From positions 1 through 57,321 of the IMG/VR virus record IMGVR_UViG_3300026097_000026: a stretch of DNA of 57,321 bases. One strand, written 5' to 3'. Source of the stretch: a virus. The position numbers were made by a program, and so were the translations under genes. Below the pieces are notes generated by a model. That model was given only the letters and a program-made list of their open reading frames with translations. It had not been told where the DNA came from and searched no databases. Each line of letters starts with the position of its first letter. Position 1 is the stretch's first letter. Shown one piece after another: positions 48,209 through 56,492 of this stretch.

Positions 48209-48452
48209 TTATATTCTTGTTAAAGATTTTAAACAAGAAGAAAAGGTTACTAAAGGTGGTATCATTATACCAAAAAGCGAAAAATGGAATCGCATGGCAA
48301 CTGTTTTGGCTTGCGGAGAATGTGACCAAGTAAAAAAAGGAGACGTTATAATGAAAAATTTAGGAAAAGGAACACCGATGATTCTTAATGATGTTGAAAT
48401 GGAAATGATTCATATAAATAATATTATGTGTATTGTTGAAAGTAATGAATAA
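48198..48452 (+). CDS. GroES-like co-chaperonin (functional analogue of T4 gp31)
   Basis: The preferred start is the ATG at 48198, giving 84 residues beginning MLNNYILVKDF. An upstream in-frame ATG at 48165 adds 11 residues that do not fit the family. GroES landmarks follow: V-K at 8-9, a mobile-loop region KQEEKVTKGGIIIPKSEK with the G-G-I/L-I/V-I-P motif, RMATVLACGE, VKKGDVIM and a final MCIVESNE strand pair. It presumably replaces or alters host GroES so that GroEL can fold a phage protein such as gp23, as T4 gp31 does. The start overlaps the gp16 end by 11 bases. Confidence 0.85.
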   Translation: MLNNYILVKDFKQEEKVTKGGIIIPKSEKWNRMATVLACGECDQVKKGDVIMKNLGKGTPMILNDVEMEMIHINNIMCIVESNE

Positions 48453-48455
48453 TAA

Positions 48456-49022
48456 ATGCAAAAACCACAAGCAAATAGTGCAGGATTTGAGCTAACAATT
48501 AAAAAAGGAGCTGAATCTTTTTCATGGTCTTCTAAAAAAGTAGAGCAGTTAATGGCTGCAATAGAAGATGGGTATAAACCAAAATCTACTCCGTTTTATG
48601 AAGGTAATACAAATTTACGAAAAGGAAATATAGTTTTTGAGTATACTGACCATGAATTAAGAGAAATACAAAAATGTGCAAGGGATATAGTTTACTTTGC
48701 AAATAATTATTGTACTGTTATGACTGATGAGGGGTTGCAGACAATAACCCTTAGGCCTTATCAAGAGGATATGTTAAGACAGTTTCAAGATGAGAGATTT
48801 AATATTTGTCTAGCTAGTAGGCAGGTTGGAAAATGTCTTACATTTTCCACCGAGATTATAGTTTTAAAGAACGGTAAAGGAATTAAAACTACAATAGGAA
48901 ATTTATATTTTGAAACACTTAAACTACAAAGACCACTTACTTTAATTGAAAAAATTAAATGGTCTTTATGGAAAGCTTATACTTGGTTAGATTCATTTGA
49001 CAGAAAGCAAGAAGAGTCTTAA
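48456..49022 (+). CDS. 17: Terminase large subunit N-terminal part fused to N-intein
   Basis: The product has 188 residues. Residues 1-126 are the N-terminus of a gp17-type TerL; the ATPase Walker A begins at LASRQVGK (119-126) and stops at the catalytic Lys. Cys127 then starts an intein N-fragment (CLTFSTEIIVLKNGKGIK), with the block A pattern C-L-x-x-x-T. About 30 further residues (KLQRPLTLIEKIKWSLWKAYTWLDSFDRK) are amphipathic and could dock with the C-fragment. The frame then ends with TAA. Without splicing this polypeptide has no Walker B and no nuclease and cannot package DNA. The C-half is encoded at 50115-51992. Confidence 0.95.
   Translation: MQKPQANSAGFELTIKKGAESFSWSSKKVEQLMAAIEDGYKPKSTPFYEGNTNLRKGNIVFEYTDHELREIQKCARDIVYFANNYCTVMTDEGLQTITLRPYQEDMLRQFQDERFNICLASRQVGKCLTFSTEIIVLKNGKGIKTTIGNLYFETLKLQRPLTLIEKIKWSLWKAYTWLDSFDRKQEES
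48834..49019 (+). other. N-intein (62 residues, split from C-intein by a homing endonuclease gene)
   Basis: Runs from Cys127 to the stop. Only intein block A lies here; block B is found in the C-fragment, so this is an atypically early split. It starts exactly after the Walker A lysine. Confidence 0.9.
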
Positions 49023-49045
49023 ATATATAATAAAATAAAGATTAT

Positions 49046-50122
49046 ATGGAAAAGATTTGTAAACAGTGCCAAGAAAAATATCAAGCTAAAAATAATAGAT
49101 CAACTTATTGTAGTACTAAATGTAAAAATAATGCATCTTTTATTAGAAACCAAGAAAAACTTAAACAAGGTATCGAAGGTGATGACTATGTAATTGATAA
49201 GTGGAATGGTTATGCAACACCAAGAATTTACGGAGCATGGATGAGATCTATGCACCCAGGTAAAACTACACAAGATTATCTTAATGAATTTCCAGGTGCT
49301 CAACTTGCATGTAAAAAAGATAAACAAGCCACTTCTAAAAATTCAGGTATTCATATGAAGGATCCTAAATACAGAAAAATGGCTAGTAATGCAATTAAAG
49401 GCAAAAGAAATCCTAATCATAAATCAAAAACTACATTACAAGAAAGACAAAAAAGAAGTCCATTTTCAGAAAATTTTAAAAACCATAAAAACTTAAATGA
49501 TCGTGATACTTTTTTAGAATCTATCGATTGGTCAAAAAGAATAACAAGTACACAATTGGAATGGTGGTTAAACAAAGGTTATTCTAAAGAAGATGCTAGA
49601 GAAAAATTAAAAGAAAGACAAACTACCTTTACATTAGAAAAATGTATACAAAAATGGGGTAAAGAAAAAGGTATTCAAAAATTTAAGGAAAGACAAGAAA
49701 GGTGGAAAAAATCTTTATACGAAACTTTTGAAAGGGAAGGTGATGGTCGTAGCCCTAGTAGTAAGTTTGCAAATTCAATTATAAAAGAACTTTGTGAATA
49801 TTTAAAAATAGAAATACCACAAAAAGAAAAATGGATTAAAAATAAGGAAACACAAAAAGCATATTCATATGATTTTACATATAATAAAAAGATCATAGAA
49901 TTTAATGGCGACTATTGGCATTGTAACCCTAAACTATATGAGGCAGATTATTTTAACAAAAATAAAAGTTTAACTGCTACTGAGATTTGGGAATATGATA
50001 AAGAAAAAGTTAAAACTGCTGAAATGTATGGATATCAAGTCTTAATTGTTTGGGAGCATGATTGGTTAAATAATCATGAAAGAGTCTTAGACAATTGTAA
50101 AAAATTTATAGATAATGATTAA
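49046..50122 (+). CDS. EDxHD/Vsr-like homing endonuclease between terminase halves
   Basis: The product has 358 residues. It begins with a zinc site (Cys5-x-x-Cys8 ... Cys22-x-x-x-Cys26, CKQCQEKY and YCSTKC), then basic DNA-binding regions (SPFSENFKNHKN), and ends with a Vsr-like nuclease: Asp276 in YSYDFTYN, Glu285 in KIIEFNGDYWH (His292), TATEIWEYDKEK, YGYQVLIVWEHDW. The E-x-N-G-x-x-W-H and W-E-x-D pattern is that of the EDxHD homing endonucleases found between halves of fractured, split-intein genes in marine phage DNA. It lies 23 bases after the N-half and overlaps the C-half by 8. It is expected to cut intein-less terminase genes and spread the insertion. Confidence 0.88.
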   Translation: MEKICKQCQEKYQAKNNRSTYCSTKCKNNASFIRNQEKLKQGIEGDDYVIDKWNGYATPRIYGAWMRSMHPGKTTQDYLNEFPGAQLACKKDKQATSKNSGIHMKDPKYRKMASNAIKGKRNPNHKSKTTLQERQKRSPFSENFKNHKNLNDRDTFLESIDWSKRITSTQLEWWLNKGYSKEDAREKLKERQTTFTLEKCIQKWGKEKGIQKFKERQERWKKSLYETFEREGDGRSPSSKFANSIIKELCEYLKIEIPQKEKWIKNKETQKAYSYDFTYNKKIIEFNGDYWHCNPKLYEADYFNKNKSLTATEIWEYDKEKVKTAEMYGYQVLIVWEHDWLNNHERVLDNCKKFIDND

Positions 50123-50552
50123 TTTACTAAAAGGTATAATTCTGATACTCATTGGATTTATAGAAACTATTGAATATCGTTCAGTTGATTTAGATCAAAA
50201 TGATATTAATAAAAAGATTATGAATACAATTAATATTTATGATGTTAGAATTGATACTGATACCGGTTGGGAAAGAATTACACATGTTCATAAAACACAA
50301 CCTTATGATATTTGGAAAGTTAAGCTTAATAATGGCATGTATCTTGAAGGGGCTGATAATCATATCTTATTTACTGAAAAATTAAATGAAGTATTTATAC
50401 GAGATTTAATTGTTGGTGATTATATTATGACCCGAGAAGGGCCTGTTGAAGTTACACAATTAATTAAATATAAGCAAAGTGTTTCTATGTTTGATGTAAC
50501 TGTGGATAACCCTAATCATAGATACTGGAGCAATGATATACTTTCACATAAC
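50115..50552 (+). other. C-intein (146 residues) with blocks B, F and G
   Basis: Ends with Asn146 before extein Thr147. Hydrophobic N-terminal stretch (MINLLKGIILILIGFIE) may pair with the amphipathic tail of the N-intein rather than form a membrane segment. Confidence 0.9.
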
Positions 50553-51992
50553 ACGATAGGATCTTCTATTTTTATTGCATGGTATTCTCTTTTTAATTTT
50601 GATAAAAATTCTTTAATACTGTCAAATAAAGGTAGTACAACATCTGAAATTATTGATAAGGGTAAAACAATATTAGAACATTTACCTTTCTTTTTAAAGC
50701 CTGGTATTTTAAAATGGGATGTATTTAACACTAAATTTGATAATGGTTGTAGGATCATTGGACAAACCACAACAAAGAAAGCTGCAATTGGTTTTACTAT
50801 TCACCTATTGTTTATGGATGAGTTTGCCCATATACCAAATAATTTTGTTAACACTTTTTACGAAAACGTATATCCTACTGTTTCTGCTTCTAAAAACTCA
50901 AAAGTAATTATAACCAGTACACCAAATGGTTTTAATAAATTTTATGATATCTATTCTGCTGCTGAAGCAGGTAGGAGTGAATATGTACCTTTTAAAATTG
51001 ATTGGTGGGATGTGCCTGGACGAGATGAAGAGTGGATGAAAAATGAAGTTGCTAATTTAGGTGATGAAGAAGCATTTAATAGACAATATGGTAATCAGTT
51101 TATAGCAAGTTCTTCTCTATTATTAAGTGCTGATAGTTTAAAGAAGTTAGCAATAAACCAAAAGGAATTTATTTTTTATGACATACCAGAATTAGAAGAC
51201 ATTGGTTTAGATTATAGTGGTTTAAAATGGGATCCTAATTTTGATGTTGAAAATGATCCTGCTGATGACTCAAACTATTGGGTATTTTCAGTTGATTTAG
51301 CAGAAGGAAATGGTGGGGATTATTCTATCATTAATATGTTTAAAATTGAGGTAATGGATTCATCTGATTTTAAAAAAATAATTACACCAGGTGCTTTTGT
51401 TGACTTTTTTAGAATAAGACAAATAGGTGTTTTTAGAAGTAATCAGCACACTATTGAGGATTTTGCAAAAATACTCTATACAATAGGATTTGATATGTTT
51501 TATTCTGAAAATTTAAAACTTATTATAGAATGGAATATGTTTGGATCTGAATTAATAAAAAGATTAGAAACTGTATTTCCTAGAAGAAATAATTTTGATG
51601 AAGAAACTATTGTTAAATTTAAGCATCGTGTTGATGCAAGATCTAAAGATTTTGGCTTAAAGGTAAAGAAAGATAATAAACCTATATTTTGCCAAAATTT
51701 TAAAAAATATGTATCACAAAATAAAATAATACTAAACGAAAAGAAAACTGTTAAAGAAGCAGGTACATTTGGAAAATTACCAAATGGATCATATGCAGGG
51801 CAGTTAGGTCATGATGATCTTATTATGACAAGTATAAATTCATCTGAATTTTTTACCACTACCGACTTTTCTGAATTTGTTGAAGAATTATATGATTTAA
51901 TTGATCCGGATATACAATTTAAAATTGATGAAATTCTTGAAAGGGATTCAAAGGGTGGGGATCTCAATTATGATATATACGATTTGGTATAA
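50115..51992 (+). CDS. 17: C-intein fused to terminase large subunit C-terminal part
   Basis: The product has 625 residues. Residues 1-146 are the intein C-fragment: block B at GADNHILF (79-86), strands through GDYIMTREGPVEV, block F VSMFDVTVDNPNHRYW (123-138), and block G ending ILSHN with His145-Asn146. Thr147 is the +1 residue. Extein then continues TIGSSIFIAWYSLFNF, so splicing gives ...RQVGKTIGSS..., a complete Walker A. Walker B is LLFMDEFAHI, coupling motif TSTPNG, nuclease motif I VFSVDLAEGNGGDYS, and a late DLIMTS. The 479 residues plus 126 from the N-half make about 605 (T4 gp17: 610). The start overlaps the endonuclease gene. Confidence 0.95.
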   Translation: MINLLKGIILILIGFIETIEYRSVDLDQNDINKKIMNTINIYDVRIDTDTGWERITHVHKTQPYDIWKVKLNNGMYLEGADNHILFTEKLNEVFIRDLIVGDYIMTREGPVEVTQLIKYKQSVSMFDVTVDNPNHRYWSNDILSHNTIGSSIFIAWYSLFNFDKNSLILSNKGSTTSEIIDKGKTILEHLPFFLKPGILKWDVFNTKFDNGCRIIGQTTTKKAAIGFTIHLLFMDEFAHIPNNFVNTFYENVYPTVSASKNSKVIITSTPNGFNKFYDIYSAAEAGRSEYVPFKIDWWDVPGRDEEWMKNEVANLGDEEAFNRQYGNQFIASSSLLLSADSLKKLAINQKEFIFYDIPELEDIGLDYSGLKWDPNFDVENDPADDSNYWVFSVDLAEGNGGDYSIINMFKIEVMDSSDFKKIITPGAFVDFFRIRQIGVFRSNQHTIEDFAKILYTIGFDMFYSENLKLIIEWNMFGSELIKRLETVFPRRNNFDEETIVKFKHRVDARSKDFGLKVKKDNKPIFCQNFKKYVSQNKIILNEKKTVKEAGTFGKLPNGSYAGQLGHDDLIMTSINSSEFFTTTDFSEFVEELYDLIDPDIQFKIDEILERDSKGGDLNYDIYDLV

Positions 51993-52043
51993 ATTATCTT
52001 AATGTGGTAGATATATAAAAAAACTAAAAAAATATAATATAAG

Positions 52044-55000
52044 ATGGCACTAGATCCACAAATAGCTTCAATAAAAGCATCAGGGACATACAGGTTTGAA
52101 TTCGATAAGAGCCAAGTAGTAGGAGTTCCAGCGAATCAAACGAGATTAGTTGTCGGTTTTTCTAAAAAAGGACCTTTTAATACACCTGTTTTTATTCCAG
52201 ATTCTTCATTCTTTAAACAAATATTTGGAGAAATTGATAGAAACTTAGAAAAAAAGGATTCTTACTTTCATAGGAGTTGTTTATCAGCTTTAGAAAGAGG
52301 TCCAATATTGGCACTTAATCTTCTATCTCTTGATTCAGATGATAAGAGCCAGTATATGAAAATGGCAACTGCAGCTACACCTGATGCACAATCTAATATA
52401 GCTTCAATTGCTGAATATTCTAAATTTTATAATCAAGACAAGTTTTGGTTTCCAGACTCTGAAGCATTTTTAAATAACGTTACACCAGCAGTTAATAGAG
52501 ATTCAATTAACTCTACAACTACTAATGACCTTTTAGATTTTACTAATTTAGGTAAAAATCCAATATCTGTTATTGTTAAAAAGGCTGCGCCACAAAATGT
52601 AGGAGGATTTAATGTTACTGTTGATGAATGGTACGGTTCTGCAAATGTACCAGGCTTTTTAAATAAAGATAGTTTGGTATCTGACTTTATGGTTGATGTT
52701 TTTGTAATTGAAGGAAACTTTGGTGGTGATTTTACACAATCTCAACCTTATGATAGATTTTCAGCAGATCCAATATTTCAAGATTATTTTGATCCGACAA
52801 AAGGTTTACAGAGAAGAAAATTTTCATCAGATGAAACTGATACACAATTAGCAGAATTTTTTAATTTAGGAGAGGTTAATTTAATTGCTTCTTATACTGC
52901 ATCTCTTTTACCTGACTTTGTTGATTTAGTTGGTAATAATTTATTTATTGAAAAAGTAATAAATGCAGACTCTGCAACTACAGGGTTATTCTGTGCAGTT
53001 AATGAAGATTTATTTAGCGGTGACTTTTTAATTGATGGTGTTGCTGGTGGTATTGATTTAGTTGGTCATAATATTGAGTATACACAATCAACATCATTCC
53101 AAGGAGATGTTAATTTCTTATCATATCATGAAACTATAGTTTCTGATATTGAGGAATGTAGAAATACAGCAACTGTTAATACCCAAACATTAAGCGGAGC
53201 TGATTCAATTTCAGTTACTACACTGTCAAACGGTAACATTCAAATACAAGTACAAGATATTACTGGTAGCACTCTTTATGATGTATTAGCTGATATGACA
53301 TCTAATACTGCTACGACAGTAGGTACTTATTTATATGATACTGTAAATAATGTATATGTTCCAGTTATTAATGTTAATGTAACACCTACTGTTGCTACTA
53401 TTACATTATCTGGAGTTGGTACTTCTGCTAGCAGTTTTCCAACAGCACCAGGTACAGTACTTTCATATATTAATGAATCTGACTTTAGTATTATAGCACA
53501 AGAATGGAACGGTACTGCACCAACATCAAATATTATAGGATCTTATGGTAGTGATCTTTATACTAATTTTACTAATGGTATTCTTACTGATGGTGATGAG
53601 GCAGTATATGAAGTAGGTGGTCAACAATATACATCATATTTAGTATTTAATGAAATTGCATATAATTATATTCATATAGCATCACCTACAGGATCTGCTA
53701 ATGCAATTGCAATATCAGATTCAAATTATAATTTACCTTCGGTTAAAATTACACCGTACGAAGAAGACTCATTTACAAACGTAACACCAATTACCCAATT
53801 TAATATCGATGGTGCTGGTTTATTTCTTAATACTTTAGGTAACACTGTATCTGCAAATTGTTTAAACATACAAACACTGAAAGGTTCTTTAAATACAACT
53901 ATAGATATTATATCAGATTATACAACTGATACTAAACTTAAACCTAACCAAGTTCTTATTAATTCTAATTCACCAGAAGCTGCAGATTTAGATGTAGGTA
54001 ATTATATGGTACATGATGAAGGTGGTTCTACTGGACATTCAAGATTAACAAGAATTAATCAAACTTCTGGTGGTTTAACATCGGCACAATATTCTTCAAT
54101 ACCAGGAGGACAAACCGCTATCTTAGTTACATGCCAATCAGAAATTTCAGTTGACACTGTGAATAATATTAAAAAGGTAGAATTATATTATCCTATTGAT
54201 CGTTGGGTTGATTACTTAAATGTATTTACATTTGATGGTTTTAAATTAGATGCAACAAAACATGTACCTGATGGATCAAATGATCGTCAAAATGAAATAT
54301 TAAATGGTACACTTAATGGTACTAATTTATTTAAAGCTCTTACTGATAGAGAAGTAATTAATTTTAGATATGTAGTTGATACATTTGGAAATGGAATTGA
54401 AAGTGGATCTAAATCATTATTTACAAATTTATGTCAAACTAGAAAAAACGCATTTGCAATATTAAATGCTCCTTCTGCAAAAGACTTTAAAAATAATACA
54501 GACCCTTCATTTACTGATTCAACTGGTGCATTATCAACTAAGTTTATATCAGAAGGTGGAGATTTAAGTAGAAACCCATCAGTTAGATATTCATTGCCTT
54601 CACCTACACAAGGTGCAAGTTGGGGATCATTTTATTTTCCTAATATTACAGTAAGAGATTTAGGTAAAAATATAAATGTACCACCTGCTGCTTATGTTTC
54701 AAATAACTTTATTGCAAAATATGCAAATGCGCTACCGTGGTCATTAGTTGCAGGTGTTCGTAGAGGTGTCGTTGGTGGAACTGGTGTTGTTGGGTTAGAA
54801 ATTAATCTAGATAAAGAAGATCGTGAATTTTTAGAACCGTTTGGTTTAAACCCAATTGTGTTTCAAACTGGAACTGGTCCTACAATTTTTGCTAATAAAA
54901 CTGCACAGCAAACAACAAGATCTGCATTAAGTTCAATTAATGTTAGAGAGGTTGTAATTTATATCCAAGATGGTATCGAAGCAATTTTAAGAAACTATTT

Positions 55001-56015: not shown

Positions 56016-56492
56016 ATGATACTATTTAAAACTGAAAATAATAAAGATGGGAAGATATTTATTGGGATGTCTGAGAATGATAATCCTCATAATTTAGGAA
56101 CGGGTAAATATATAAAGCAAGCAATTAAAAAATTTGGTACAAATTCATTTACTAAAGAAGTTCTTGAAACTTTTGATAGAAAAACACCATTAAGTGAAAT
56201 AATGGATCGTGTTGAATTTTGGATTAAGGAATTTAAATCAGATAATCCTAAATATGGATATAATGAAAGTATTAAGGAAACTATACCTCAGAAAAGAAGG
56301 CTAACAAGAAAAGTACAAGTATTGATAACGCCTGATGATGAAGATTCTTTAAATAGTATTATTATTCAAAAATCAATGGAAAGTAATACCAAACCACAAT
56401 CAGTATCTAAATATGTTAGGCAATTAATAGTAGAACATATAATCGAGGAAACATCAACTGATAAAATAATTACAAATAAAAGAATTAAATAA
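56016..56492 (+). CDS. Degenerate GIY-YIG-like domain plus possible ribbon-helix-helix
   Basis: The product has 158 residues. The first ~85 resemble a GIY-YIG nuclease domain: DGKIFIGMS (residues 11-19) stands for the Y-I-G strand, TGKYIKQAIKKFGTNSFTKEVLETF for the conserved helix, and VEFWIKEF holds the Glu. However, the first GIY strand reads ILF and the helix with the catalytic Arg is missing because of a short deletion (MSENDNPHNLGTGKY). The C-terminal ~60 residues (RKVQVLITPDDEDSLNSII ... VSKYVRQLIVEHIIEE) look like a ribbon-helix-helix or similar DNA-binding unit. Probably nuclease-dead and possibly a regulator. Its stop overlaps the next ATG. Confidence 0.6.
   Translation: MILFKTENNKDGKIFIGMSENDNPHNLGTGKYIKQAIKKFGTNSFTKEVLETFDRKTPLSEIMDRVEFWIKEFKSDNPKYGYNESIKETIPQKRRLTRKVQVLITPDDEDSLNSIIIQKSMESNTKPQSVSKYVRQLIVEHIIEETSTDKIITNKRIK

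What the first reader, a model, noticed from the sequence alone, without database searches (positions are those of the whole stretch)
48834..50552. The intein split is atypical: block A alone on a short N-fragment, blocks B, F and G on a 146-residue C-fragment
The N-intein has only 62 residues, of which about 25 are conserved, while the block B His motif (GADNH) is on the C-fragment. Most natural split inteins break near the endonuclease site after block B. Both ends at the break are unusually hydrophobic or amphipathic (LIEKIKWSLWKAY and INLLKGIILILIGF), which could form a docking helix pair. Early-split TerL inteins such as AceL-TerL have a similarly short N-part, so this may be a further member with an extra assembly module and a Thr at +1.
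Basis: partly seen in the sequence, partly recalled or inferred. Interest (0 to 1): 0.82.

Follow-up and report, generated by a model that had tools for sequence, protein, structure and literature searches.

The report
Split intein with hairpin at break
A phage DNA-packaging motor gene is broken in two by a self-splicing intein whose halves each carry one helix of a conserved helical hairpin, so they probably clip together before stitching the motor protein back into one chain; dozens of related phages share the design.

Summary
The T4-type large terminase gene is broken inside Walker A (SRQVGK|T). A 62-residue N-intein (block A) sits on one ORF; a 146-residue C-intein (blocks B, F, G) sits on another; a homing-endonuclease-like ORF lies between. 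This is an N-terminally (atypically) split class 1-type intein in a 'fractured gene' arrangement, both known kinds. What looks new is the module at the break. Across about 60 non-redundant relatives the N half ends in one helix and the C half starts with another. dN/dS there (0.27, 0.30) equals that of catalytic block A (0.29). Three relatives, each nested among split ones, are contiguous and join the helices into one hairpin; AlphaFold2 predicts that hairpin for one of them (pLDDT 94.6). The window's two halves, separated by 364 nonsense residues, still fold as one Hint domain with both helix regions largely confident. Split relatives without the hairpin exist, so it is an added module, not a requirement. 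Atu_ph07, a cultured phage, carries a Ser1/Thr+1 version.

The parts
48456..48833 (+). N-extein: TerL (gp17-like) N-terminal 126 aa, ending in Walker A SRQVGK
   Evidence: phrog_5989 terminase large subunit E 5e-27
48834..48923 (+). N-intein residues 1-30: block A (Cys1) and following short helix
   Evidence: sequence; AF2 pLDDT ~97
48942..49016 (+). helix 1 of the hairpin (N-intein residues 37-61)
   Evidence: AF2 helix 37-61; conserved LTFLEKIKxxLYK in N halves; dN/dS 0.27
49046..50122 (+). interstitial homing-endonuclease-like ORF (Cys-rich N-terminus, REase-like C-terminus IIEFNGDYWH...WEHDW); its stop overlaps the ATG of the C half
   Evidence: phrog_22677 E 2.8e-17, phrog_3339 homing endonuclease E 5e-7; Pfam MTES_1575/DUF559 below cut-off
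50115..50174 (+). helix 2 of the hairpin (C-intein residues 1-20)
   Evidence: AF2 helix to C residue 20; conserved ILKxIILxLIxLIE
50190..50219 (+). conserved connector LDQNDINKKI between hairpin and Hint core
   Evidence: Lys33, Lys34 invariant; part of it was also a scan pattern (bias)
50349..50363 (+). block B GADNH (His83)
   Evidence: A80, D81, H83 invariant in 43 C halves
50484..50504 (+). block F SMFDVTV (Asp127)
   Evidence: M125, D127 invariant
50532..50552 (+). block G NDILSHN (penultimate His, terminal Asn146)
50553..51992 (+). C-extein: TerL residues from Thr+1 (rest of ATPase, nuclease domain), 479 aa
   Evidence: Pfam Terminase_6N E 5.3e-13; phrog_36964 E 1.9e-30

Best explanation
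A natural, N-terminally split class 1-type intein broken in a fractured TerL gene. The break lies at the tip of a conserved helical hairpin inserted between the block A helix and the block B strands. Helix 1 ends the N half and helix 2 starts the C half. The halves are made as separate proteins; the hydrophobic helices pair as an antiparallel hairpin, which seats block A in the large C half and completes the Hint fold. Cys1 then starts splicing, Thr+1 takes over the ester, Asn146 cyclises, and TerL is rejoined across its Walker A loop. Shown here: the anatomy, the conservation and purifying selection on both helices, the hairpin in contiguous relatives, and the predicted reconstitution. Inferred: helix docking, the order of assembly, and splicing itself.
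For: Blocks and junctions. 61 of 89 non-redundant relatives are split with the hairpin. N halves are 42-73 aa (median 54) in 52 split hairpin loci. dN/dS over close pairs: helix 1 region 0.27, C extension 0.30, block A region 0.29, C core 0.18. Three contiguous relatives (L051, L075, L106) keep both helices; each has a split nearest neighbour at 96-98% support. AF2 of L051: pLDDT 94.6, pTM 0.87, helices 32-44 and 50-64. AF2 of the window's N half + 364 nonsense residues + C half: residues 1-50 at ~97, 51-60 at 84; C half ~85-98; assembled domain matches VidaL at Z 18.0, 1.7 A over 135 residues. In LR756501 the halves are separate genes about 12.4 kb apart. The two strongest inter-half covariation pairs are N49-C6 and N49-C10, as an antiparallel pair would give.
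Against: Covariation is weak overall (6 helix-helix pairs in the top 60 against 3.1 expected; mean not raised). Split relatives without a hairpin exist, so docking helices are not indispensable. The contiguous relatives keep the helices although they need no docking, so the hairpin may have another structural role. AF2 coordinates and PAE were not available; both models put the halves on one chain, and in the window model a filler helix runs into helix 2. A few C halves lack a standard HN end (SQ or LN).
Confidence: 0.72

Rival explanations
1. The hairpin is a fixed structural or nucleic-acid/partner-binding part of this intein lineage (for example a platform for the endonuclease or DNA); the break merely falls in its exposed loop, and the helices add little to recognition between halves.
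For: Contiguous relatives keep the hairpin; helix 1 tails are mostly basic (net +1 to +7 in nearly all relatives, 0 in the window); hairpin-free splits assemble without it.
Against: 15 hairpin-bearing split loci have no full endonuclease gene between the halves; both helices are rich in hydrophobic residues and modelled with high confidence in the Hint domain.
Confidence: 0.17
2. The halves no longer splice: a decaying intein and a broken terminase.
For: No splicing data; some relatives have odd C-terminal residues.
Against: dN/dS well under 1 in all four regions; catalytic residues nearly invariant; both TerL pieces keep terminase domains.
Confidence: 0.04
3. The intervening stretch is an intron, so the intein is contiguous at the RNA level.
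For: terL genes of Jug phages are split by group I introns (PMC12363816).
Against: No intron family in 48400-52100 even at E 5; the endonuclease stop overlaps the C-half ATG, leaving no intron 3' end; halves 12 kb apart in LR756501.
Confidence: 0.02
4. The hydrophobic helices are membrane anchors that bring the halves together on the membrane.
For: The C-half start is strongly hydrophobic (LLKGIILILIGFI).
Against: Helices are short, interrupted by conserved Lys/Glu, and modelled in the soluble Hint fold.
Confidence: 0.03

Closest known systems
AceL-TerL / GOS-TerL / Cat split inteins (atypical, N-terminal split)
   Same: TerL host gene; break after block A and before block B; short N half, long C half
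   Different: N halves 25, 37 (reducible to 27) and 30 aa, and GOS-TerL uses Ser1/Cys+1 (PMC11766414); the profile aligns to CatC (6dsl) only from C residue 30, so no helix 2. Here 62 aa, Cys1/Thr+1, hairpin
VidaL intein (6vgv)
   Same: best solved relative by sequence (E 1.4e-8) and by Foldseek
   Different: sequence match starts at C residue 42; 134-135 residues align structurally, so the hairpin is not matched as a whole
Fractured genes with split inteins and free endonucleases (Dassa et al. 2009; from memory, paper not held)
   Same: enzyme gene broken by a split intein with an endonuclease-like gene between the halves
   Different: break inside a helical hairpin not described there to my knowledge
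Contiguous TerL inteins of Ackermannviridae (CBA120, KpS110, VP-1, Kuja)
   Same: same Walker A site GK|T, Cys1/Thr+1, related Hint core
   Different: contiguous; only a short, less hydrophobic stretch where the hairpin sits
PolB16 OarG split intein
   Same: N-terminal split, natural (PMC10189870)
   Different: 15-aa N half, Ser1/Ser+1, DNA polymerase host, no hairpin described

Membership tests
Class 1 intein | Cys/Ser at position 1, block B His, block F Asp, C-terminal His-Asn, +1 Cys/Ser/Thr | tested here: met
   Cys1, His83, Asp127, His145-Asn146, Thr+1
Class 1 intein | Hint (horseshoe) fold | tested here: met
   VIA-align Z 18.0 to 6vgv, 1.7 A over 135 residues, for the two-half model
Class 1 intein | splicing activity | not testable with these tools
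   needs protein experiment
Atypically (N-terminal) split intein | break between block A and block B | tested here: met
Atypically (N-terminal) split intein | N half of about 15-25 aa as described so far (PMC11923092); GOS-TerL 37 aa | tested here: not met
   62 aa here; 42-73 aa in 52 hairpin-bearing split loci
AceL/GOS/Cat-TerL lineage | Cys at +1 (reported for GOS-TerL) | tested here: not met
   Thr+1
AceL/GOS/Cat-TerL lineage | C half begins just before the block B strands, no helix 2 | tested here: not met
   profile aligns to CatC only from residue 30
Fractured gene with split intein | enzyme gene broken by split intein with a separate endonuclease gene between | tested here: met
   32 of 52 relatives have an ORF of 250+ aa between the halves
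Fractured gene with split intein | endonuclease of the Vsr-like (EDxHD) family | tested here: inconclusive
   homing endonuclease PHROG E 5e-7; REase-like Pfam hits below cut-off; no solved relative

The most novel reading that the evidence does not exclude
A helical hairpin that evolved as a detachable clip: inserted once into TerL inteins, broken at its tip by an endonuclease gene, it lets the halves find each other and lets the gene be split and re-fused repeatedly without loss of splicing. Lineages could carry mutually orthogonal clips.
Probability: 0.3. Interest if true: 0.75.

Novelty: new variant of a known kind. Interest (0 to 1): 0.6.

Why it matters
Early-split inteins are used for protein labelling, but their short disordered N halves can bind weakly. 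A large natural family that adds a helix pair exactly at the break offers a natural assembly handle. Three natural re-fusions allow direct cis/trans comparison, and a cultured phage (Atu_ph07) carries a Ser1/Thr+1 member. It also shows how a gene can stay broken after its endonuclease is lost, and how the break can later close.

Tried and rejected
Intron instead of split intein: no Rfam intron. Block B hidden in the N half: none seen. Chance hydrophobicity: rejected by conservation and dN/dS. Thr+1 as special: shared with contiguous inteins at the site. Several MAFFT alignments mixing N-only and C-only rows misaligned the halves and were not used for folding; in-frame read-through rows fixed this. 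Solved-structure search with N halves gave nothing. Covariation test gave only weak support. VIA-align lists archaeal inteins with 142-149 aligned residues against about 127 for mini-inteins; whether part of the hairpin matches something in them was not resolved. Dassa 2009, Stevens 2018 and Bachmann 2015 are not held.

Full report
OBSERVATION. ORF 48456-49022 carries the first 126 residues of a T4-type large terminase (TerL) up to Walker A (SRQVGK), then Cys1 of an N-intein of 62 residues (codon at 48834). ORF 50115-51992 begins with a 146-residue C-intein that ends ILSHN at 50552; TerL resumes with Thr. Terminase families match both sides. Between them is a 358-aa ORF (49046-50122) matching homing-endonuclease PHROGs; its stop overlaps the C-half ATG. 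Block B (GADNH), F (MFDVTV) and G (ILSHN) are all on the C half.

RELATIVES. A profile scan of viral contigs found 52 loci, and a second scan using only the Hint core, so without bias toward the extensions, kept the best 80 loci. Break, hairpin and contiguity were scored on the nucleotide sequence. On a non-redundant set of 89, 61 are split with the hairpin, 3 contiguous with it, 20 split without it, 5 contiguous without it; two labels were set by hand (L051, L122), and two 'hairpin-free' rows (L104, L142) lie at contig ends, so their N halves were not seen. In 52 loci where both hairpin-bearing halves were found, N halves are 42-73 aa; 32 have an ORF of at least 250 aa between the halves, 15 have at most 300 nt, 5 are neither.

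THE MODULE. N halves end in LTFLEKIKxxLYKxYxxL and C halves begin ILKxIILxLIxLIEKxEYRxLxLDxNDIxKKI. Column entropy of C residues 1-21, 22-42 and 43-146 is 1.62, 1.45 and 1.52 bits, so the extension is as conserved as the core (part of this segment was a scan pattern). Pooled dN/dS over close pairs is 0.29 for block A, 0.27 for helix 1, 0.30 for the C extension, 0.18 for the core. Hairpin-free split relatives (for example L089, L105, L130) break at the same place with N halves of about 37-42 aa, so the hairpin is an addition at the break.

FUSIONS. L051, L075 and L106 are single ORFs in which helix 1 runs into helix 2. Each pairs with a split relative at 96-98% support (L041, L017, L032). The simplest reading is three separate re-fusions of a split ancestor; with 104 columns the deeper tree is unresolved.

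STRUCTURE. AF2 of the L051 intein: pLDDT 94.6, pTM 0.87, helices 32-44 and 50-64 separated by five residues, which is most simply a hairpin. For the window, the DNA from 48834 to 50552 was read through its stops to give N half + 364 nonsense residues + C half. The halves came out confident (1-50 at ~97, 51-60 at 84; C half ~85-98) with the filler mostly under 70, and together matched VidaL at Z 18.0, 1.7 A over 135 residues. Coordinates were not provided, so helix contact itself was not measured. A filler helix runs into helix 2 in this model, a weakness.

TRANS. In the 735-kb phage LR756501 the N half gene lies about 12.4 kb upstream of the C half, and a second record also has its N half well away from the C half. 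Two separate proteins must therefore meet.

LITERATURE. Natural split inteins mostly break at the endonuclease site; atypical ones have N halves of 15-25 aa (PMC11923092). AceL-TerL has 25, GOS-TerL 37, Cat 30, and atypical halves bind through clustered hydrophobic residues (PMC11766414). No paper found describes a helical hairpin at the break, but the library lacks most subscription journals.

CULTURED MEMBER. Agrobacterium phage Atu_ph07 has TerL in two adjacent genes, gp110 and gp109, broken at the same site, with Ser1 and Thr+1 and helix-like ends. A search of its genome paper for 'intein' found no occurrence.

VERDICT. Known kind (early-split intein in a fractured gene), new variant (break at the tip of a conserved hairpin). 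Docking by the helices is the likeliest role, about 0.7 for the whole account.

Noticed in passing
L068 (Agrobacterium phage Atu_ph07) 3633-5824: TerL split in two adjacent genes by a split intein with Ser1 and Thr+1; the word intein does not occur in the genome paper.
   Followed up: partly
L007 and L064 (LR756501.1); L061 and L143: N and C halves of the split TerL lie about 12 kb apart with other genes between.
   Followed up: partly
L006 4913-5728; L065: Intein-free TerL-like paralogues with a degenerate Walker A (SRQMGI[ST]), which would lack the intein target.
   Followed up: no
L093, L096 and similar: Hairpin-free early-split inteins at a P-loop GK|S site of an SbcC/gp46-like ATPase gene, with endonuclease-like ORFs between.
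   Followed up: no
L006/L062; L007, L059, L060: C-inteins ending in SSQ or LN instead of HN before Thr+1.
   Followed up: no
L008 (Vibrio phage VP-1) 2488-4704: TerL CDS runs into a GIY-YIG-like stretch after its contiguous intein, so the gene has a second interruption.
   Followed up: no
window 56016-56492: A further homing-endonuclease-like ORF (phrog_314, E 1e-12) near the TerL locus.
   Followed up: no
L010 (Salicola phage SCTP-2) 2950-3843: TerL piece starts with a hairpin-free C-intein and ends in what looks like another N-intein, i.e. broken at two sites.
   Followed up: no
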